Shown here: piece by piece, positions 41,665-54,075 of the stretch
How positions within the stretch are numbered: position 1 is the first letter of the stretch
Layout: each line of letters opens with the position of its first letter
NCBI GenBank assembly: GCA_903913285.1
Contig: CAIWKO010000038.1
Location: 1-64,000 of the forward strand
Length of the DNA stretch: 64,000 bases
Direction: 5' to 3'
DNA from: an uncultured Bacteroidales bacterium
GTDB lineage: Bacteria > Bacteroidota > Bacteroidia > Bacteroidales > CAIWKO01
Position numbers and translations under genes: made by a program
The notes under the pieces: generated by a model
The model's database searches: none
The model's input: the letters and a program-made list of their open reading frames with translations, nothing else
What the model was told of the DNA's origin: nothing

Positions 41665-44274
41665 GTGAAAAAATTCAGTTTACGGATAAGGAACCCCAAA
41701 ATAGCGAAGCGGCTCAAAAAAACGGCCATTTCGCTCCTGATAATTCTGTCGGTTTTTGGGTGTATCGGGATATTTCTGGGATATTATTATGAAGATACCG
41801 TTAAGCGTATTATCATCAGTGAGCTCAATAAGCGGTTAAATACCGAACTTATTGTTCAAAATGTTGACCGCGACATTCAATTCTCTATTTTTAAGAAATT
41901 CCCTTATGCTTCCGTAAGTTTCAATAACGTGGTCATGCTGGATGCCATAAAAGACAAAAAGAATAAAAAGAATCTGTTGGAGGCAAAAACCGTTTACCTG
42001 CAATTGAGCATCTGGGATATGATCTTCGGAGAATATCACATCAAGAAGATAGAGATCAGCGATGCAACGGTTACACTAAGAACCTATAAAGACCGCAGCG
42101 ACAATTACCATTTCTGGAAACCATCCACCGATACTACTCCTTCTAATTTTGCATTCGACCTTCAGAAAGTTTGGTTGAACAAAGTTCGGGTATCGTATCT
42201 CGATTACGGGCTGCGTCAAAACTTTTCCGTTGTTGCCAAAGATGTGATGTTTAAAGGCGATTTCTCTGAAGAGAACTATAACATGAAGATCGACGGCGAT
42301 ATTTATGTGTATAAAATAAAATCGGGCGACGATCTGTATCTTGCGAACAAAAATACTACGGTTGAAGTATTGTTGAACGTGAATAGTAAGCAGAAAAATC
42401 TTTTGTTCGAAAAGGCCCGGATCGATATCGGGAATATGGTTTTTTCGCTTAGCGGGAATATTTCGTATGCAGAAAATGAAACGTATACTAACCTCCAGAT
42501 CGAAGGGAAGAAGATGCAGCTGCAATCATTTATTAACGAACTTCCGCCACAATATTCCTCACACTTCAACGGTTACGAATGCAAGGGCGATTTCTATTTT
42601 CAGGCCGCCATAAAAGGTTATGTCGGCAGCACCTCCACTCCGGGAATAGTTGTTTCGTTCGGGTTAAACAACGGCGAAATTGTCCGCTCCGAAAACTCTA
42701 TTGCTTTAAAAAATGTTGGTTTCAAAGCATCCTACACCAATGGAGCACAACACGACGGTCAGACATCGTATTTAAAGATCGGCGGGTTTTCTTCGACCCT
42801 TAGCGATGGAACCGTCAACGGGTACTTTTCGATACGAAACTTTTTGAAACCCGAAATTGAACTTAATTTCTCGGCCAATCTGGGATTGAAAGATCTGGTC
42901 AGTTTCTTAAAAATAGATACAGTTGAATCGGGTGAGGGCAGAATGATCATGCAGGCGAATTTCAAAGGAACCATAGAGAACGCTGATAAGTTCACCATCA
43001 AAGATTTTATCGGCAGCACCACTTCGGGCAAAATGCAACTGCAAAATGCCAACATCATTATGAAAGGCAAGCAGCAGAAATTTACCAATCTGAACGGCAA
43101 CTTCATTTTTAACAATAATGATGTGGAGTCGCAAAATTTCACCGGTAGTTACATGTCGAACGATTTCTCCCTGCAGGGGCATTTCAAGAATATTTTCCCG
43201 TATCTGTTTCTCGAGCATCAAAATCTTATTATTGACGCCAATCTCGTTTCGCAGAACATCGACATGGGCGAGATCCTGAAGTTTTCGGAAGGCAAGAAAG
43301 ATACGGTTTACAAACTAATATTGCCCGACAATATCAACTTCAATCTGTCTTTACAGGTTAAAAAGTTTGTCTTTAATAAGTTCACGGCTACCAACATTTC
43401 GGGTATCATACAGATGAAAAACAGGCAGCTGGTGGCCAAAGATATTTCGTTGCAGGCTGTGAACGGCAAAATAGATTTCACCGGGCTTGTTGACGGTTCG
43501 CAACCCGACAAACTATTGATAAGCTTCGATGCTTCCGTTAAAAAAGTGAATATCCAGCGATTGTTCAACGAACTGAACAATCTGGGACAAAAAAGTCTGC
43601 AGGATAAGAACATCAAAGGGGTGCTGACCGCCGATGTGCAGTTTGCCTCGGTATGGTCGTCTACCTTCAAGGTTGAAAAGCCCACCATTTATACCAATGC
43701 CACTATCACAATCGAAAACGGGGAACTGATCGATTATGAACCCCTGAAAGGATTGTCGAAATACCTTAAAAACAGAGATCTTTCGCACGTGGTGTTCCAA
43801 ACGTTAAAAAACACCATCGTCATCAAAGACCAGCTTATCACCATCCCCGACATGGAAATAAACAGCACCGCTATCGACTTTAAACTAAACGGCACACACG
43901 GTTTCGACCAAACCATCGACTATCATCTGGCCGTATTGGTATCGCAACTCCGGAGCAGCGGCGAAAACAAGAACAACGTGATAAAAGACATCGGGCAAAT
44001 TGAAGACGACGGGCTTCACAAAGAAAAATACTTCTTCAGAATAACAGGCACCGTTGATAAACCCATTTATCACACCCTCGACAAGGAAGGCATCAAACAG
44101 AACATCAAGAGCAACCTGAGCAAAGAAAAAGAAAATCTGAAAACTATTTTAAACCGCGAATTCGGCTGGTTCAAGAAAGACAGCGTTGTGAACAAAAACG
44201 TTAAACCGAAAGATAAATACGATTTCAACGTCATCTGGGACGAAGATGATCCGAAAGATAAGAAAGAAAAATAG
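41665..44274 (+). CDS. AsmA-like envelope protein
   Basis: An 869-residue protein with one N-terminal transmembrane helix (AISLLIILSVFGCIGIFLGY, about 22-41) and a very long periplasmic beta-rich body. The N-terminal NTELIVQNVDRDIQFSIFKKFPYASV and the C-terminal repeat-like region (LKDLVSFLKIDT through GTVDKPIYHTL, 420-800) fit the AsmA/TamB-type group of bridge proteins that move lipids across the periplasm or assist outer-membrane assembly. It ends in a charged Lys-rich tail. The start codon is GTG. It lies 99 bases before the acyl carrier protein gene on the same strand; joint regulation is possible but not shown. Confidence 0.85.
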   Translation: MKKFSLRIRNPKIAKRLKKTAISLLIILSVFGCIGIFLGYYYEDTVKRIIISELNKRLNTELIVQNVDRDIQFSIFKKFPYASVSFNNVVMLDAIKDKKNKKNLLEAKTVYLQLSIWDMIFGEYHIKKIEISDATVTLRTYKDRSDNYHFWKPSTDTTPSNFAFDLQKVWLNKVRVSYLDYGLRQNFSVVAKDVMFKGDFSEENYNMKIDGDIYVYKIKSGDDLYLANKNTTVEVLLNVNSKQKNLLFEKARIDIGNMVFSLSGNISYAENETYTNLQIEGKKMQLQSFINELPPQYSSHFNGYECKGDFYFQAAIKGYVGSTSTPGIVVSFGLNNGEIVRSENSIALKNVGFKASYTNGAQHDGQTSYLKIGGFSSTLSDGTVNGYFSIRNFLKPEIELNFSANLGLKDLVSFLKIDTVESGEGRMIMQANFKGTIENADKFTIKDFIGSTTSGKMQLQNANIIMKGKQQKFTNLNGNFIFNNNDVESQNFTGSYMSNDFSLQGHFKNIFPYLFLEHQNLIIDANLVSQNIDMGEILKFSEGKKDTVYKLILPDNINFNLSLQVKKFVFNKFTATNISGIIQMKNRQLVAKDISLQAVNGKIDFTGLVDGSQPDKLLISFDASVKKVNIQRLFNELNNLGQKSLQDKNIKGVLTADVQFASVWSSTFKVEKPTIYTNATITIENGELIDYEPLKGLSKYLKNRDLSHVVFQTLKNTIVIKDQLITIPDMEINSTAIDFKLNGTHGFDQTIDYHLAVLVSQLRSSGENKNNVIKDIGQIEDDGLHKEKYFFRITGTVDKPIYHTLDKEGIKQNIKSNLSKEKENLKTILNREFGWFKKDSVVNKNVKPKDKYDFNVIWDEDDPKDKKEK

Positions 44275-44373: not shown

Positions 44374-44619
44374 ATGCAATACGACGAAATTAAATCCCGC
44401 TTGAATAAAGTCTTCTGTACAGTTTTTAAAGACAATACCATTGTCATTACCGAAGAAACCACGGCCAATGATATTGAGAAATGGGATTCGTTGACCCATT
44501 TGATGTTAATTTCAGCCACCGAAACCGAATTTGGCATTAAGTTTAAACTGAAAGAACTTATTGCCATGAAAAACGTGGGTGATTTTATGAAATCCATTGA
44601 AACCAAGCTTGCTGTTTAA
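44374..44619 (+). CDS. Dedicated acyl carrier protein
   Basis: An 81-residue acyl carrier protein. The phosphopantetheine attachment serine is S39 in KWDSLTHLML; the surrounding helices (MQYDEIKSRLNKVF, LKELIAMKNVGDFMKSI) are typical. It is not the fatty-acid acpP (which is more acidic and sits with fab genes), and it is not beside any synthase. Instead it precedes two SGNH proteins and an MBOAT acyltransferase with only a 12-base gap, so it probably carries the acyl group used by that cassette, like DltC in the Dlt system. Confidence 0.92.
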   Translation: MQYDEIKSRLNKVFCTVFKDNTIVITEETTANDIEKWDSLTHLMLISATETEFGIKFKLKELIAMKNVGDFMKSIETKLAV

Positions 44620-44631
44620 ACCTGTTCTGTT

Positions 44632-46110
44632 ATGAGGAATAAGCCCTTTGAGGTACTCATCATCATTCTGATATCGGAATTATTGCTTGTTGGTTATTCG
44701 TTCTATTATAATTCAACGGGCGCTGCATTTATCAAAGAGAATGTACGCTTTCTTTCTCCCGATAAGCTTGCCGATTTTTCGCTGAAAGACGCCAACAAAA
44801 ATGCCGACAGCCTGCTGAAGAACTATCTGTCGAATACGCTGAGCGACGATAAGATCATCAAACGCACCAATCTCTCTAAAATAGGCCCCAAGAAACAAAA
44901 TGCCTTTTTGGTGAACCCCGTAACCGAAAACGGAAGCGCCCTCGACAATTTCTTTAAATCGCTGCTGCACCAAAAAGATTCCACAACGGTTCGCATTGCC
45001 CATTACGGAGATTCGCAGCTGGAAGGCGACCGCATGTCATATATCGTCCGCGAGAAGTTTCACGAAAAGTTCGGCGGCTCGGGTATAGGATATGTTCCGC
45101 TGAAAGACCTCTCGCCCGTTAGCTATGTGCGAAAAAGCAGCGGAAACTGGGCCAAGTATACCGTTTTCCACGACAGGTCGTCGAAAAACGATTACGGTAT
45201 ATCGGGAGCCGTGTTCCGGTTCAGCAAATTCTCGGTTCATCAAAGCGATGATGCCGAAAACGACACCTCATCCTCGAAAAAAGATACGCATCAGATAACG
45301 GGCGGAAAGCCTTTTTATAATGCCAGCGTATCGATGAAAATGGGCAGCCAGTATGCTTATAACAGCGTTTCCATCCTTTACGGCCATGCCACCGATAAAT
45401 GCATCGTGAACTATTACGACAATGCTAGCGGCGAACGCGTTAAAACCGATACGCTTGCTGCATGCACCAAAGTATGTATGCACAAAACCCAGCTGGGCGG
45501 CTATTTGAATGTGAAGGTGGAGTTTGCGGCCGACAATAGCCCCGATTTCTACGGTATGTATTTCGACAGCGGCAAAGGTGTGCAGGTTGACAATTATGCC
45601 ATACGCGGCCATTCGGGCGACGGGCTGATGATGATAAACGACGATGAACTTACCCAGATGCTGGACCTGTCGAATACCAAACTCGTCATTTTCCAGTATG
45701 GCGCCAACGTGGTACCGTATATACATTCCGACGAAGCCTGCGAATGGATTAGCGGAATCTATTATAAGCTTTTCATGAAGTTTAAAAAGGCCAAACCCGA
45801 TATCAGCATCCTCGTTATCGGTGCAGGTGATATGGCCAAGGGCGGCGAAGGAAGCTATTCATCATATCCCTGGTTGCCCAAAATTACCGAAGCTCAGAAA
45901 CGGGCGGCTCTGAAAGCCGGCTGCGCTTATTGGGACCTGTTCAACATGATGGGCGGACTAAACTCCATCATTACCTGGACCGACAAAAAACTTGCCGTCA
46001 CCAATGGACATTTCTCCGAAAAGGGACAAAAGATCATCGCCAACGAATTGGTTGAAGCACTAATGGTAGAATACAACATTTACGTTCACAAACAGCGGAT
46101 GAAGAAATAG
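44632..46110 (+). CDS. SGNH-hydrolase-like membrane-anchored protein
   Basis: A 492-residue protein with an N-terminal hydrophobic anchor (FEVLIIILISELLLVGYSF) and a periplasmic SGNH-like domain from about 115. Block I is HYGDSQLEGDR with Ser in GDS. Block III is QYGANVVPY with Asn. The last block is VTNGHFSEKGQKI with His, but the usual Asp three residues before that His is Thr. It could be a degenerate member or use another acid. Size and anchoring recall DltD, AlgX and PatB, acyl transferases working after an MBOAT. It is second in the ACP-SGNH-SGNH/LysM-MBOAT cassette. Confidence 0.8.
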   Translation: MRNKPFEVLIIILISELLLVGYSFYYNSTGAAFIKENVRFLSPDKLADFSLKDANKNADSLLKNYLSNTLSDDKIIKRTNLSKIGPKKQNAFLVNPVTENGSALDNFFKSLLHQKDSTTVRIAHYGDSQLEGDRMSYIVREKFHEKFGGSGIGYVPLKDLSPVSYVRKSSGNWAKYTVFHDRSSKNDYGISGAVFRFSKFSVHQSDDAENDTSSSKKDTHQITGGKPFYNASVSMKMGSQYAYNSVSILYGHATDKCIVNYYDNASGERVKTDTLAACTKVCMHKTQLGGYLNVKVEFAADNSPDFYGMYFDSGKGVQVDNYAIRGHSGDGLMMINDDELTQMLDLSNTKLVIFQYGANVVPYIHSDEACEWISGIYYKLFMKFKKAKPDISILVIGAGDMAKGGEGSYSSYPWLPKITEAQKRAALKAGCAYWDLFNMMGGLNSIITWTDKKLAVTNGHFSEKGQKIIANELVEALMVEYNIYVHKQRMKK

Positions 46111-46112
46111 TG

Positions 46113-47969
46113 ATGAAGCGAATGCGGCCATATCGATTCTGGATACTCATGCTCATACCCGTTATAGGTATGCTGCTCGCGTTCCGCAATTATATAAAAC
46201 CCCCGGCAGCATTCCATGTGAAACTTATCGAAGATTCTATCAACAGTCCGAAATACATGAACGACCTGGTGAAGTATCAGAACTATTACCCGTTTATTAA
46301 CTACGACAGAAACTTCGTGGAATGGACCAACATTTCGGCCATCGATTCGTTCTTCCGGAAAATACCACAAACCCCGCATCGCAAATTAAAGATACTGCAC
46401 ATAGGCGACTCGCACCTGCAGGCCGACTTCCCGTCGGGCTATATACGCGAACGCCTGCAAGACATATTCGGCTACGGCGGACGCGGCCTAGTGTTCCCCT
46501 ACAGAGCCGCAGGCACACATTCGGCCTACGACTACAAGACCTATTGCACCGGAGCCTGGCAATATACGCGCAACACCCAGCGCGACGCGGTGCTCGATAT
46601 GGGCATGATAGGCGCTACCATCTATACCAACGATTCGAACGCGAGTTTTAAACTGGTGTTTCGCGAGGGTTTTATCCGCGACAACTTCACCGTGATAAAA
46701 CTTTACTGCAAGCAGGATAGTTTGAGCTACGACGTGAAACTGAAAACCTGTTCGGGTTCGGTTCCTATTTATTGCGACTGCAGCGACAACGGCGCCAAAA
46801 AGCCCTACATCCTCGTCAAACTATCGAAACCTTCGGACACGATAGAGGTGACCGTGAACAAGACCAAAAAGAAGCAGAACTTCTTCGAATGCTACGGCCT
46901 GATGATAGAAAGCAGCGACAACAGCGGCGTTTTGTATTGCAGTACGGGCATCAATGGCGCGGGCTACAGAAGCCTGTTGAAACAACGCCTGTTCGAACAG
47001 CACGTGGCCGAGTTCAAACCCGACCTGGTGATACTCGACCTCGGCGCCAACGATTTCTACGGCGGAGCATTCCGAACCGAGGAGATGGAAAGCAACCTGG
47101 TTAAAATTGTCGACATGATACAGCGCGCAACACCCGGCACCGCCATCCTCATCTCGAACTCGCAGGACATACTCTACCGCCACCGCAAAGATATTGCCGA
47201 ATGCAACGATTTTATGCAGATGACCAAACGCGTGGCTGCCTACCGCAAATGCGCCTTTTATAACTATTACGACGTGAGCGGCAACAAAGGCTCGATGATG
47301 CAATGGTATAAGCGCGGACTTTCGAAACCCGACAAGATACACCTCACCACCCTGGGCTATTATACCAAGGGCGAACTGTATCTGAATGCCATACTCAACT
47401 CCTATGTGTTGTGGCTGCAAAATAAATCGGACAGCCTTTCGGCCGACAAACACCAAATGGACACCACGCAACTCAAGCAATATTTTGTCGACGATATAAG
47501 TTTCAAAAAAGAGAACACCCGGGTTGAACACGCTCCCGTTTATTCCGAACTAAGCACCGACACCGAAGGCACCGACAAGGTTTACTATGTGGTGCGTTCG
47601 GGCGACAACCTCGGGGCCATTGCCGACCGCTACGGAGTTTCGGTGAAAGACCTGGAATACTGGAACGGCCTGTCGGGCACCAAAATAATAGCAGGCGAAT
47701 CGCTGGTTATCTTCAAAAAGTCGCATACCACGCCGCCCGACCCTATGCCGAAAAACGCCGAAAAAACCGTTATTCCGCAAAATCAGGCAGCCATCCGCCC
47801 CACCAACACCACCCGCCCCGTGCAGCGCAAAGCAGCCTATAAAGTGACATCGGGCGACTCGTTGTGGTCGATAGCAAAGAAATACAATACCACGGTAGAT
47901 AAAATTAAACAACTTAACAAACTAAAATCCGAAAAGCTCAGCATCGGACAAACGTTGCTGATACCATAA
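46113..47969 (+). CDS. SGNH-hydrolase-like protein with two LysM domains
   Basis: A 618-residue protein; the ATG at 46113 is preferred to the in-frame GTG at 46110 that overlaps the previous stop. A hydrophobic N-terminal segment (FWILMLIPVIGMLLAFRNY) anchors or exports it. The SGNH domain has a full set: GDSHLQADFP, GANDFYGG and DKIHLTTLGYY (Asp-x-x-His). The C-terminal part carries two LysM modules, at about 488-533 (YYVVRSGDNLGAIADRYGV) and 573-618 (YKVTSGDSLWSIAKKYN), which bind peptidoglycan. So the acyl-transfer step may act on or near the cell wall. Third gene of the cassette, 3 bases before the MBOAT gene. Confidence 0.85.
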   Translation: MKRMRPYRFWILMLIPVIGMLLAFRNYIKPPAAFHVKLIEDSINSPKYMNDLVKYQNYYPFINYDRNFVEWTNISAIDSFFRKIPQTPHRKLKILHIGDSHLQADFPSGYIRERLQDIFGYGGRGLVFPYRAAGTHSAYDYKTYCTGAWQYTRNTQRDAVLDMGMIGATIYTNDSNASFKLVFREGFIRDNFTVIKLYCKQDSLSYDVKLKTCSGSVPIYCDCSDNGAKKPYILVKLSKPSDTIEVTVNKTKKKQNFFECYGLMIESSDNSGVLYCSTGINGAGYRSLLKQRLFEQHVAEFKPDLVILDLGANDFYGGAFRTEEMESNLVKIVDMIQRATPGTAILISNSQDILYRHRKDIAECNDFMQMTKRVAAYRKCAFYNYYDVSGNKGSMMQWYKRGLSKPDKIHLTTLGYYTKGELYLNAILNSYVLWLQNKSDSLSADKHQMDTTQLKQYFVDDISFKKENTRVEHAPVYSELSTDTEGTDKVYYVVRSGDNLGAIADRYGVSVKDLEYWNGLSGTKIIAGESLVIFKKSHTTPPDPMPKNAEKTVIPQNQAAIRPTNTTRPVQRKAAYKVTSGDSLWSIAKKYNTTVDKIKQLNKLKSEKLSIGQTLLIP

Positions 47970-47972
47970 CCC

Positions 47973-49466
47973 ATGCAAACACTTACCGACTTTTTTAAAT
48001 CGCTGCTCTATAATCAACATGCACCCCTGCTCTACAACTCGGTATTGTTCTGCGTGCTGTTCTCGGTTTTGTATCTGGGCTATATTTTCGTTTATAACGA
48101 CATCAAAAAACGCAACCTGCTGCTGCTGGCCTTCAGTTTGTTTTTCTACTACAAACTGAGCGGGGTATATGTGTTGCTGCTCATCGCCATGGGCACTTCC
48201 GATTATCTGATCGGCAGGCAGATGTTTCGCGTAAGCACCCAGCGGAAAAAGAAAATGCTGCTGTTGCTCTCCATCTTCATCAACGTGGGAGCCCTCATAT
48301 TGTTCAAATACACCAATTTTCTGCTCAACACCTTTTTCGGCATCACCACGGGAAGTGGCTCGCCGATGGTGCTCGATTTGCTGGTGCCCGTGGGCATTTC
48401 GTTCTACGTGTTTAAAACCCTGTCGTATATTTTCGATATCTACCGCGAGGTGATAGACGAACCCGAAACCAACTATTTCAACTATCTGCTGTATGTTTCG
48501 TTTTTCCCCAACATTATGGCGGGCCCCATTTCGAAAGCCCGCGACCTGCTGCCGCAGTTCAACAGCCAGCTCAAGTTCAGCAGCGACCTTATCGGTAAGG
48601 CTTTTTTGCTGGTGCTTATCGGGGCGTTCAAAAAAGTGTTTATCGCCGATTTTCTTGGTGCCAACCTCGTCGACCGCGTGTTCGATTCGCCCGAGTTTTT
48701 CACGGGTTGGGAAGGCCTAATGGCCATCTACGGCTATGCCATGCAGATCTATTTCGACTTTTCGGGCTACACCGACATCGTTATCGGGCTGGCCATGCTG
48801 CTCGGCTTTAAGGTGAACCCCAACTTCAACAAGCCATTTATGGCCGACAACGTTGCCGATTTCTGGCGCCGCTGGCATATAACGCTGTCGGGATGGTTCA
48901 ACGAATACGTGTTCTACCCCCTGTCGTATACTTTCCGCCGTTTCAAACAGTTTGGCGTGATACTGGCGGTGCTCATCACCTTTTTCATTTCGGGTTTCTG
49001 GCACGGGGCCGCGTGGACCTATATTTTGTGGGGCACTTCACACGGGCTGGCCATCGCGCTCACATTTGCCACGGTGAACCTGCGCTCGAAACTTGCCAAA
49101 CGCAACACCTGGGGCATCTACAAGTTTTTGAGCATCTTCATCACCTTCCATTTTCTGGCGTTTTCCATGGTGCTGTTTCGCGCCGAAAGTTTGCAGGCCG
49201 CCGGCAAATTGTATGCGCTGGTGTTCAACCATTTTAGCTTGAGCGTGGCGGGGCAGTGGGCAAGCCTCTACACCAAACCGCTTATCATACTAGCTGCTGC
49301 CTACATTTTGCATTATATGCCACTTTCGTGGAACGAGTTCTTCACACGGCGGTTCAGCGCGCTGCACTGGTCGATAAAAGCGCTGATAGTGGTTCTCGGC
49401 ATCTTGTTCATCTATCAGGGCTTTTCGTCCGACACGCAGCCGTTTATTTATCTCGAATTTAGTTGA
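47973..49466 (+). CDS. MBOAT-family O-acyltransferase (AlgI/DltB-like)
   Basis: A 497-residue integral membrane protein with about eleven helices. The MBOAT signature is clear: FWRRWHITLSGWF (His about residue 302) and SGFWHGAAWTYILWG (catalytic His about 343). Family members pass an acyl group through the membrane to an extracytoplasmic acceptor (alginate by AlgI, peptidoglycan by PatA, teichoic acid by DltB). The adjacent ACP, two SGNH proteins and LysM modules suggest acylation of peptidoglycan or a wall-linked glycan. It is the last gene of the cassette; no terminator hairpin follows, only repeats. Confidence 0.95.
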   Translation: MQTLTDFFKSLLYNQHAPLLYNSVLFCVLFSVLYLGYIFVYNDIKKRNLLLLAFSLFFYYKLSGVYVLLLIAMGTSDYLIGRQMFRVSTQRKKKMLLLLSIFINVGALILFKYTNFLLNTFFGITTGSGSPMVLDLLVPVGISFYVFKTLSYIFDIYREVIDEPETNYFNYLLYVSFFPNIMAGPISKARDLLPQFNSQLKFSSDLIGKAFLLVLIGAFKKVFIADFLGANLVDRVFDSPEFFTGWEGLMAIYGYAMQIYFDFSGYTDIVIGLAMLLGFKVNPNFNKPFMADNVADFWRRWHITLSGWFNEYVFYPLSYTFRRFKQFGVILAVLITFFISGFWHGAAWTYILWGTSHGLAIALTFATVNLRSKLAKRNTWGIYKFLSIFITFHFLAFSMVLFRAESLQAAGKLYALVFNHFSLSVAGQWASLYTKPLIILAAAYILHYMPLSWNEFFTRRFSALHWSIKALIVVLGILFIYQGFSSDTQPFIYLEFS

Positions 49467-53731: not shown

Positions 53732-54075
53732 GTTTACATAAAATCGGAAGCTCATTTACATAAAATCGGAGTCCATTTACATGAAATCGGAGCCCGTTTA
53801 CATGAAATCGGAAGCCATTTACACGAAATCGGAGGGTATTTACATAAAAGAAATTAAGCTGCGAGCAAAATCGGAACCCGTTTACACGAAATCGGAAGCC
53901 ATTTACAACAAATCGGAACCCGTTTACAAGAGCGCGGAAGCTCGGCGCGTAAAATCAGAAGCCATTTACATGAATTTTTCACCGCTTACATAAAATCGGA
54001 AGCCGTTTACATGAAATCGGAAGCCATTTACACGAGTTCGGAAGCCTCTTTACATTGTCGAAATCAGACATTTTG
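53732..54075. repeat. Tandem array, 21-bp period (array A)
   Basis: About twelve units with core TTTACATGAAATCGGAAGC, each 21 bases in the well-preserved parts (53754-53774, 53775-53795, 53796-53816, 53817-53837). Between regular units are three insertions near 53850, 53935 and 53975 that keep the core. The plus strand reads as heptapeptides of the type KSEPVYM/KSEAIYT in one frame (53781-53993), but the 22-base first unit shifts frame and there is no start signal, so no gene is called. It lies between the unknown gene's upstream region and terC. Confidence 0.9.

What the first reader, a model, noticed from the sequence alone, without database searches (positions are those of the whole stretch)
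44374..49466. ACP, two SGNH proteins (one with LysM) and MBOAT: a candidate wall/glycan acylation cassette
The gene set recalls DltC (carrier), DltD (SGNH) and DltB (MBOAT), or AlgI/PatB, but no DltA-like ligase is present and two SGNH proteins are used. The third gene has tandem LysM domains, pointing to peptidoglycan. The genes are nearly contiguous (12, 2 and 3-base gaps), so they are surely co-expressed. What acyl group is loaded on the ACP, and on which acceptor it ends, is open.
Basis: partly seen in the sequence, partly recalled or inferred. Interest (0 to 1): 0.68.

Follow-up and report, generated by a model that had tools for sequence, protein, structure and literature searches.

The report
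Carrier-protein-fed cell-wall acylation cassette
Four neighbouring genes, helped by two partner genes elsewhere in the same genome, look like a bacterial machine that loads a small amino-acid-type group onto a carrier protein, passes it through the inner membrane and attaches it to a sugar polymer, probably the cell wall; I found no report of such a combination.

Summary
In detail: ACP (44374-44619), SGNH1, SGNH2 with two LysM domains, and MBOAT (to 49466), gaps 12, 2 and 3 bases. The reading is incomplete in one decisive point: the ligase is unlinked, not absent. In Bacteroidota relatives the cassette is the back part of a six-gene operon, ligase - GNAT - ACP - SGNH1 - SGNH2(LysM) - MBOAT (17 of 37 loci show all six in order, one with a cut ligase). 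The window's genome keeps orthologs of both missing genes elsewhere: ligase C45:87080-88582, GNAT C18:81284-81922; trees place both among the operonic ones. The ligase is an amino-acid adenylating enzyme near DltA and 4oxi (AlmE by recall). The MBOAT ends in FIYLEF, the motif whose Tyr carries the acyl group in PatA and DltX. Both SGNH models rank peptidoglycan O-acetylesterases first. Best reading: a Dlt-like donor side (probably glycyl or alanyl, possibly N-acylated by the GNAT) joined to a PatA/Ape1-like wall-acylating side. Acyl group and acceptor remain inferred. New variant of a known kind.

The parts
44374..44619 (+). ACP, 81 aa, free-standing acyl/aminoacyl carrier protein (Ser39 in WDSL, codon 44488-44490)
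   Evidence: Ser39 and Trp37 invariant in 27 rows; best solved relative 2lml, E 1.4e-17
44632..46110 (+). SGNH1, 492 aa, predicted N-terminal helix (4-29, a membrane helix by my reading), Ape1-like fold; probable acyltransferase partner of the MBOAT. Ser128, Asn359, His460 kept; block V shortened and Asn458 where most relatives have Asp
46113..47969 (+). SGNH2, 618 aa, Ape1-like fold plus two LysM; full triad Ser100, Asp407, His410. Probable wall-bound esterase or second transferase
47580..47720 (+). first LysM domain (about residues 490-536 of SGNH2)
   Evidence: boundaries approximate
47838..47966 (+). second LysM domain (residues 576-618 of SGNH2)
47973..49466 (+). MBOAT, 497 aa, DltB-like; His302 and His344 invariant in 24 rows
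49443..49460 (+). C-terminal hexapeptide FIYLEF of the MBOAT (Tyr493), counterpart of the acyl-Tyr motif of PatA and DltX
   Evidence: 31 of 31 MBOATs over 450 aa in the LysM-type loci end in Y-x-x-F/Y; shorter, cut ones left out; motif function from PMC12148441

Best explanation
A six-component, carrier-protein-dependent envelope acylation system, four of whose genes are in the window. Step 1 (inferred from family and pocket motif): a DltA/AlmE-like ligase encoded elsewhere in the genome (C45) adenylates a small amino acid, glycine or alanine being likeliest, and loads it on Ser39 of the ACP. Step 2 (inferred, weakest): the GNAT encoded on C18 N-acylates (probably N-acetylates) the carrier-bound aminoacyl group. 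Step 3 (inferred from conserved residues and a mechanism demonstrated in PatA and Dlt): the MBOAT moves the acyl group from the ACP to Tyr493 of its own C-terminal FIYLEF motif. Step 4 (inferred): an SGNH serine, most likely that of SGNH1, takes the group and esterifies a sugar hydroxyl of peptidoglycan or of a glycan beside it. Step 5 (inferred): SGNH2, held on the wall by two LysM domains and with a complete Ser-His-Asp triad, removes the ester or acts as a second transferase. Shown here by computation: gene order, orthology of the unlinked ligase and GNAT, co-occurrence, motifs and folds. My step estimates: six-component pathway 0.85; aminoacyl donor 0.7; GNAT acting on the carrier-bound group 0.45; acyl-Tyr relay 0.85; peptidoglycan as acceptor 0.6.
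For: Operon: of 37 best loci of one genome scan (L096-L132), 17 show ligase-GNAT-ACP-SGNH1-SGNH2(LysM)-MBOAT in order (ligase cut in L123), plus L105 cut inside SGNH2; outside that scan also L077 and L083. Unlinked orthologs in the window's genome: ligase 681 bits against at most 289 for its other AMP-binding proteins, GNAT 258 bits; same pattern in G002, G003, G081. The two loci with GNAT, room upstream and no ligase beside it (L100, L103) have a 635-bit ligase elsewhere. Trees: own-genus ligases sit with operonic L097/L099/L105 (87/85), G081's with L106/L108/L112 (100/100); own-genus GNATs with L099/L105 (95/92). Co-occurrence in 247 class genomes: all 10 GNAT genomes have a ligase match at E<=1e-95, against 21 of 237 others; 7 of 10 have LysM-type SGNH2 of >=500 bits, against 3 of 237. 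GNAT and ACP in one frame in L222. Ligase: FDLS invariant in 12 rows, FCGEA in 16 of 19 operonic and 4 of 4 unlinked ligases, pocket region nearest 4oxi. MBOAT motif 31 of 31. Folds: the first five matches of both SGNH models are peptidoglycan O-acetylesterase chains (E 4e-23 to 2e-20), next match E 6.5e-7 or 3e-8. Control: 0 of 43 loci L133-L175, whose SGNH2 lacks LysM, show ACP, ligase or GNAT.
Against: No biochemistry: substrate, product and acceptor are inferred. LysM does not require the donor set: the genome of L098 has no ligase match above 271 bits and no GNAT match, and those of L115, L109, L110, L111 and L116 (only 1.2 Mb held) have neither. Nor is LysM confined to the carrier type: L133, L134, L138, L140 and L158 have an extra LysM-bearing SGNH protein upstream, L139 one downstream. 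In G001 and L101 an acetate--CoA-ligase-like enzyme stands in place of ligase and GNAT, which fits acetyl transfer there. Three genomes of the 247 (G019, G034, G225) have ligase-GNAT-ACP beside other MBOAT clusters (L221-L223), so the donor set is not tied to this acceptor. GNAT may regulate the ligase instead. SGNH1 of the window has lost the block V Asp. LysM binds GlcNAc-containing glycans in general (recall). Fisher values ignore relatedness; searches scored at most 6, 12 and 5 candidates a genome, and absence in draft genomes (G001 is 93% complete) is not proof.
Confidence: 0.5

Rival explanations
1. ACP-dependent O-acetylation: the ACP carries plain acetyl (or another short acyl), and the system is a PatA/Ape1-type peptidoglycan O-acetylation system in which acetyl-ACP replaces acetyl-CoA.
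For: G001 (same genus) and L101 carry an acetate--CoA-ligase-like enzyme beside the cassette (G001 protein 653.7 bits to the NCBIfam model, cut-off 729; L101 743 bits to the G001 protein's model); both SGNH models rank O-acetylesterases first.
Against: The window's genome and the six-gene operons have an amino-acid adenylating ligase with the FDLS Asp; the acetate-type ligase was found in only 2 of the 37 loci, and in L101 no ACP was seen in the locus.
Confidence: 0.2
2. Plain Dlt-like aminoacyl esterification (glycyl or alanyl with free amine) of an envelope glycan; the GNAT is a regulator that acetylates the ligase, as AcuA does for acetyl-CoA synthetase, and takes no part in the chemistry.
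For: Ligase-ACP-MBOAT operons without GNAT exist in other Bacteroidia (L236, L237, L239); GNAT control of AMP-forming ligases is known (starts of abstracts in the listing: PMC11255334, PMC11619455).
Against: GNAT and ACP share one frame in L222; no GNAT match was found in the two genomes that use the acetate-type ligase, the class AcuA is known to control.
Confidence: 0.2
3. The acceptor is not peptidoglycan but a capsule, O-antigen or exopolysaccharide; LysM only parks SGNH2 on the wall.
For: MBOAT-SGNH pairs acylate alginate, cellulose and secondary wall polymers (PMC12148441, passages); no peptidoglycan gene lies in the cassette; ABC-transporter-like and other surface-polymer-like genes begin on the same contig about 14 kb downstream (L020, by eye).
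Against: Peptidoglycan O-acetylesterases are the nearest folds for both SGNH proteins; the own ligase gene lies beside genes I read as mraZ, rsmH and further division/wall genes; SGNH2(LysM) adjoins a RodA/FtsW-family gene in L232.
Confidence: 0.25
4. The four genes are a decaying remnant in this genus, since ligase and GNAT are unlinked and SGNH1 lost its triad Asp.
For: Asn458 in the window and L096; operon broken.
Against: All four genes intact in G000, G002 and G003; MBOATs of the genus 54-81% identical to the window's; ligase and GNAT intact and conserved; FIYLEF kept.
Confidence: 0.05

Closest known systems
Dlt pathway (DltA, DltB, DltC, DltD, DltX)
   Same: Adenylating ligase, free-standing carrier, MBOAT and SGNH proteins; MBOAT is DltB-like (196 bits); two operonic ligases scanned hit the DltA subfamily at 272 and 321 bits; Tyr relay motif.
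   Different: Ligases and MBOAT are below the curated Dlt cut-offs; the Tyr motif is fused to the MBOAT instead of lying on a DltX; two Ape1-like SGNH proteins, one with LysM, instead of DltD; extra GNAT; Bacteroidota.
PatA/PatB/Ape1 peptidoglycan O-acetylation
   Same: MBOAT with fused C-terminal Tyr hexapeptide; Ape1-type SGNH fold; presumed wall acceptor.
   Different: Carrier protein and ligase instead of acetyl-CoA (other MBOAT-SGNH pathways are said to lack a carrier, PMC12148441); no PatB entry among the 50 rows shown for either SGNH model; LysM present.
AlmE/AlmF/AlmG (glycyl modification of V. cholerae lipid A)
   Same: Amino-acid ligase plus carrier feeding an envelope modification in a Gram-negative; the pocket region of the ligase is nearest 4oxi, which I recall to be AlmE; AlmE loads glycine on AlmF (PMC12930378, passages).
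   Different: AlmG is not an MBOAT-SGNH relay (recall); acceptor is lipid A.
SGNH1-SGNH2-MBOAT operons of Bacteroidia without ACP
   Same: Related three genes in the same order.
   Different: No ACP, ligase or GNAT in 43 of 43 loci L133-L175, many of them cut by contig ends; SGNH2 without LysM; SGNH1 keeps DxxH in 17 of 17 rows, against 2 of 26 rows from L096-L130 and the window.

Membership tests
Dlt D-alanylation | DltA-type amino acid:carrier ligase | tested here: inconclusive
   Present but unlinked; DltA-subfamily scores 272 and 321 bits for two operonic relatives against cut-off 476; the window genome's own ligase was not scanned against NCBIfam; amino acid identity not testable
Dlt D-alanylation | Free-standing carrier protein | tested here: met
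   81-aa ACP with invariant Ser39
Dlt D-alanylation | DltB equivalog | tested here: not met
   TIGR04091 196 bits, cut-off 375: relative, not member
Dlt D-alanylation | DltD SGNH protein | tested here: not met
   No DltD model among the Pfam and NCBIfam rows; folds rank O-acetylesterases first (50 of 77 and 50 of 76 significant rows seen)
Dlt D-alanylation | Teichoic acid acceptor | not testable with these tools
   Chemistry needed
PatA/PatB/Ape1 | MBOAT with invariant C-terminal Tyr hexapeptide | tested here: met
   FIYLEF, Tyr493
PatA/PatB/Ape1 | PatB-type transferase | tested here: not met
   No PatB entry (7TJB, 8TLB) in the 50 rows shown for either model, of 77 and 76 with E<=0.001
PatA/PatB/Ape1 | Ape1-type SGNH fold | tested here: met
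   TM-score by target length 0.79-0.80 (SGNH1) and 0.82-0.84 (SGNH2) to 4k3u; 8gkd and 8gld are titled Ape1 of C. jejuni
PatA/PatB/Ape1 | acetyl-CoA donor | not testable with these tools
   ACP gene argues against it
Alm | Glycine:carrier ligase and carrier | tested here: inconclusive
   4oxi nearest in pocket region; substrate not tested
Alm | AlmG transferase | not tested
   No search made; the cassette has MBOAT and SGNH proteins instead

The most novel reading that the evidence does not exclude
Bacteroidota decorate peptidoglycan (or a wall-bound glycan) with N-acylated aminoacyl esters, such as N-acetylglycyl, built on a carrier protein by a DltA/AlmE-like ligase and a GNAT and delivered by an MBOAT acyl-Tyr relay to Ape1-fold enzymes, one of them LysM-anchored: an envelope modification with no counterpart in the papers that my searches listed.
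Probability: 0.25. Interest if true: 0.82.

Novelty: new variant of a known kind. Interest (0 to 1): 0.62.

Why it matters
It would be a Gram-negative, wall-directed pathway with the donor side of Dlt (ligase plus carrier) and the membrane and periplasmic side of PatA/Ape1. A recent account of MBOAT-SGNH pathways holds that those outside Dlt lack a carrier because they use acyl-CoA (PMC12148441, passages); this cassette would be an exception. Named candidate genes for the missing ligase and the GNAT turn 'what is loaded on the ACP' into a simple in vitro loading assay.

Tried and rejected
Linked-ligase idea: the ligase and ACP about 25 kb downstream on the same contig (C38:74.9-76.8 kb, L020) were considered as the cassette's loader and rejected: a fatty-acyl-CoA/AMP-ligase-like enzyme (312 and 289 bits to two NCBIfam models, both under cut-off) with its own ACP and MBOAT, 34 bits to the cassette ligase model.

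The G001 ligase on C91 was considered as an ortholog of the operonic ligase and rejected: 316 bits, against 554 bits for the same C-terminal stretch of the window genome's ligase; it has its own ACP-like (13 bits) and GNAT-like (18 bits) neighbours.

In the ligase tree two rows, L114 and L115, were labelled 'operon6' by a loose filter; they are unrelated AMP-binding proteins from elsewhere in those loci. I do not count them as operon ligases; the tree was not rebuilt. In one search I dropped ligase matches under 110 bits for the same reason.

With the whole ligase as query, linear gramicidin synthetase (two adenylation domains) ranks first and DltA chains follow further down; the 4oxi result is from the pocket stretch alone, and for the window genome's own stretch no DltA chain passed E 1e-12.

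Paper searches gave no report of this operon; only open-licence PMC papers are held and I saw listings, so this is weak evidence of novelty. The PDB entry 4oxi is labelled 'Enterobactin synthetase component F-related protein'; that it is V. cholerae AlmE is my recall, and PMC12930378 does not mention 4oxi. That 4k3u is an Ape1 is recall too; its title says peptidoglycan O-acetylesterase. That the Cys of FCGEA equals Cys-269 of B. cereus DltA (bottom of the D-Ala pocket, PMC4176424, passages) was not tested by alignment.
Full report
What is there. The four genes are real and tightly packed, with gaps of 12, 2 and 3 bases. Families: carrier protein, two SGNH/GDSL proteins, the second with two LysM domains, and an MBOAT. 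The nearest solved relatives by sequence are 2lml for the ACP, the peptidoglycan O-acetylesterase 4k3u for SGNH1 and, after a LysM protein matched through LysM alone, for SGNH2, and DltB for the MBOAT. Co-expression is likely from the spacing but was not tested.

Where it occurs. In 247 genomes drawn from the window's class, 121 have an SGNH1 match at E<=0.001. Of 40 neighbourhoods that I fetched from these matches (from the top of the list and spread down it, not random), 28 have SGNH1, SGNH2 and MBOAT together, some with a gap or with SGNH2 fused to the MBOAT. Only 3 of the 40 (L056, L077, L083) have an ACP beside them; these have SGNH2 proteins of 589-606 aa with LysM. So there appear to be two kinds: a common one without carrier and with a short SGNH2, and a rarer one with ACP and LysM.

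The six-gene operon. A scan of named genomes with the LysM-type SGNH2 returned 80 loci, the best 80 of 545. Of the first 37 (L096-L132; 36 carry LysM on SGNH2, L105 is cut before it), 17 show ligase-GNAT-ACP-SGNH1-SGNH2-MBOAT in order on one strand (in L123 the ligase is cut by the contig end), L105 shows the first four and a cut SGNH2, 3 have GNAT-ACP-SGNH1-SGNH2-MBOAT, 2 have an acetate-type ligase after the MBOAT, 6 have SGNH1-SGNH2-MBOAT only, 1 has SGNH1 and SGNH2, and 7 have SGNH2 only. Several of the short ones are cut by contig ends: L114, L121, L127, L129, L131, L132. None of the 43 loci whose SGNH2 lacks LysM (L133-L175) shows ACP, ligase or GNAT, though six of them have another LysM-bearing SGNH protein nearby.

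The missing genes in the window's genome. Its eleven AMP-binding matches were scored with models of the operonic ligases. One, at C45:87080-88582, scores 681 bits; the others reach at most 289. It lies next to, and divergent from, genes I recognise as mraZ, rsmH, ftsL, a PBP, murE and mraY, and before lpxK (names are my reading of the proteins). The GNAT ortholog is at C18:81284-81922, 258 bits, the only match in the genome at E<=1e-6. G002, G003 and G081 show the same dispersed state. Two further genomes, those of L100 and L103, have GNAT in the operon and a 635-bit ligase elsewhere. G001, of the same genus and 93% complete, has an acetate--CoA-ligase-like enzyme beside the cassette, and neither a GNAT match nor a true ligase ortholog; the genome of L101 likewise. 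The genome of L098 has neither donor set as searched; an acetate-type ligase elsewhere in it was not looked for.

Trees. In the ligase tree the unlinked ligases of G000, G002 and G003 lie with operonic L097, L099 and L105 (support 87/85), that of G081 with L106, L108 and L112 (100/100), so the operon appears to have been broken at least twice (two mislabelled rows are explained under rejected ideas). In the GNAT tree the own-genus GNATs lie with L099 and L105 (95/92); that of G081 is unresolved.

Co-occurrence. Of 247 genomes, 10 have the GNAT at E<=1e-15; all 10 have a ligase match at E<=1e-95, against 21 of the other 237; 7 of the 10 have LysM-type SGNH2 of at least 500 bits, against 3 of 237 (G042, G082, G116) (Fisher 2e-10 and 1e-9). 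These values take genomes as independent, which they are not, and the searches scored at most 6, 12 and 5 candidates a genome. The three GNAT genomes without such an SGNH2 (G019, G034, G225) have ligase, GNAT and ACP together near other MBOAT clusters; that of G019 includes a weaker LysM-bearing SGNH2 relative. In G034 GNAT and ACP form one 299-aa frame (L222:1920-2819); this is one case on a 5.5-kb contig and could be a lost stop.

Chemistry suggested by the parts. The ligases have the FDLS motif invariant in 12 aligned rows; its Asp binds the amino group in amino-acid adenylation domains (recall). FCGEA is found in 16 of 19 operonic ligases counted (L107, L128 and L130 have LSGEA) and in 4 of 4 unlinked ones. 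In the pocket region the nearest solved chain is 4oxi for both an operonic ligase and the window genome's own ligase; I recall 4oxi as AlmE, which loads glycine (PMC12930378, passages). DltA chains also appear for the operonic one but not, at E<=1e-12, for the own one. Glycine or alanine is therefore my choice, not a result. The MBOAT keeps two invariant His (302, 344), and 31 of 31 MBOATs over 450 aa in the LysM-type loci end in Y-x-x-F/Y. PMC12148441 (abstract and passages) shows for PatA that this Tyr is acetylated and that PatB can use the acetylated peptide, and reports the same role for DltX.

The SGNH pair. Models (mean pLDDT 86.6 and 87.5) have peptidoglycan O-acetylesterase chains as their first five Foldseek matches, with a wide gap to the next. 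SGNH2 keeps the full triad (invariant in 42 rows). In SGNH1 the DxxH block is one residue shorter in 24 of 26 rows from the window and L096-L130 (D/E-G-H in 22, N-G-H in the window and L096; L110 and L119 have DxxH), while 17 of 17 rows of the kind without LysM on SGNH2 have DxxH. I read SGNH1, with its N-terminal helix, as the transferase and SGNH2 as the wall-bound esterase or second transferase; the reverse is possible.

Verdict. The claim that the system has no ligase does not. It is a new variant of the MBOAT-SGNH acylation kind: carrier-fed like Dlt, with a fused Tyr motif and Ape1-like enzymes as in the Pat system, plus a GNAT and LysM. Acyl group and acceptor need chemistry.

Noticed in passing
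L020:5378-13817 (G000:C38, about 4 kb past the window's end): A second MBOAT cluster: MBOAT ending PFIYFRF, a fatty-acyl-ligase-like enzyme and its own ACP, with ABC-transporter-like genes (by eye) at L020:4-1499.
   Followed up: partly
L221, L222, L236, L237, L239: Other Bacteroidia have ligase-(GNAT)-ACP-MBOAT operons followed by a 296-383 aa protein with no Pfam match above its cut-off: candidate Dlt-like systems with other acceptors.
   Followed up: partly
L232:36-3319 and L233:6193-9262: A LysM-type SGNH2 gene lies directly before a protein which in L232 is a FtsW/RodA family member (262 bits) and which looks alike in L233 by its first residues.
   Followed up: partly
L223:4900-11535: MBOAT, a DHHW/AlgX-like protein and a LysM-bearing SGNH2 relative run tail to tail with a ligase-GNAT-ACP set.
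   Followed up: no
L133, L134, L138, L140, L158: The carrier-less kind of operon has an extra, LysM-bearing SGNH-like protein upstream in these loci.
   Followed up: no
window 41665-44274: 869-aa AsmA/YhdP-like protein (weak matches, under cut-offs) just before the ACP on the same strand; its counterparts in relatives were not searched for.
   Followed up: no
window 53781-53993: Short ORF made of a repeated KSE-x-IY/VY pattern; may be a non-coding tandem repeat.
   Followed up: no
L122, L129, L131, L139: MAG names such as Sphingomonadales, Chryseobacterium gleum, Planktophila or Thalassobius on these loci may be misnamed bins.
   Followed up: no
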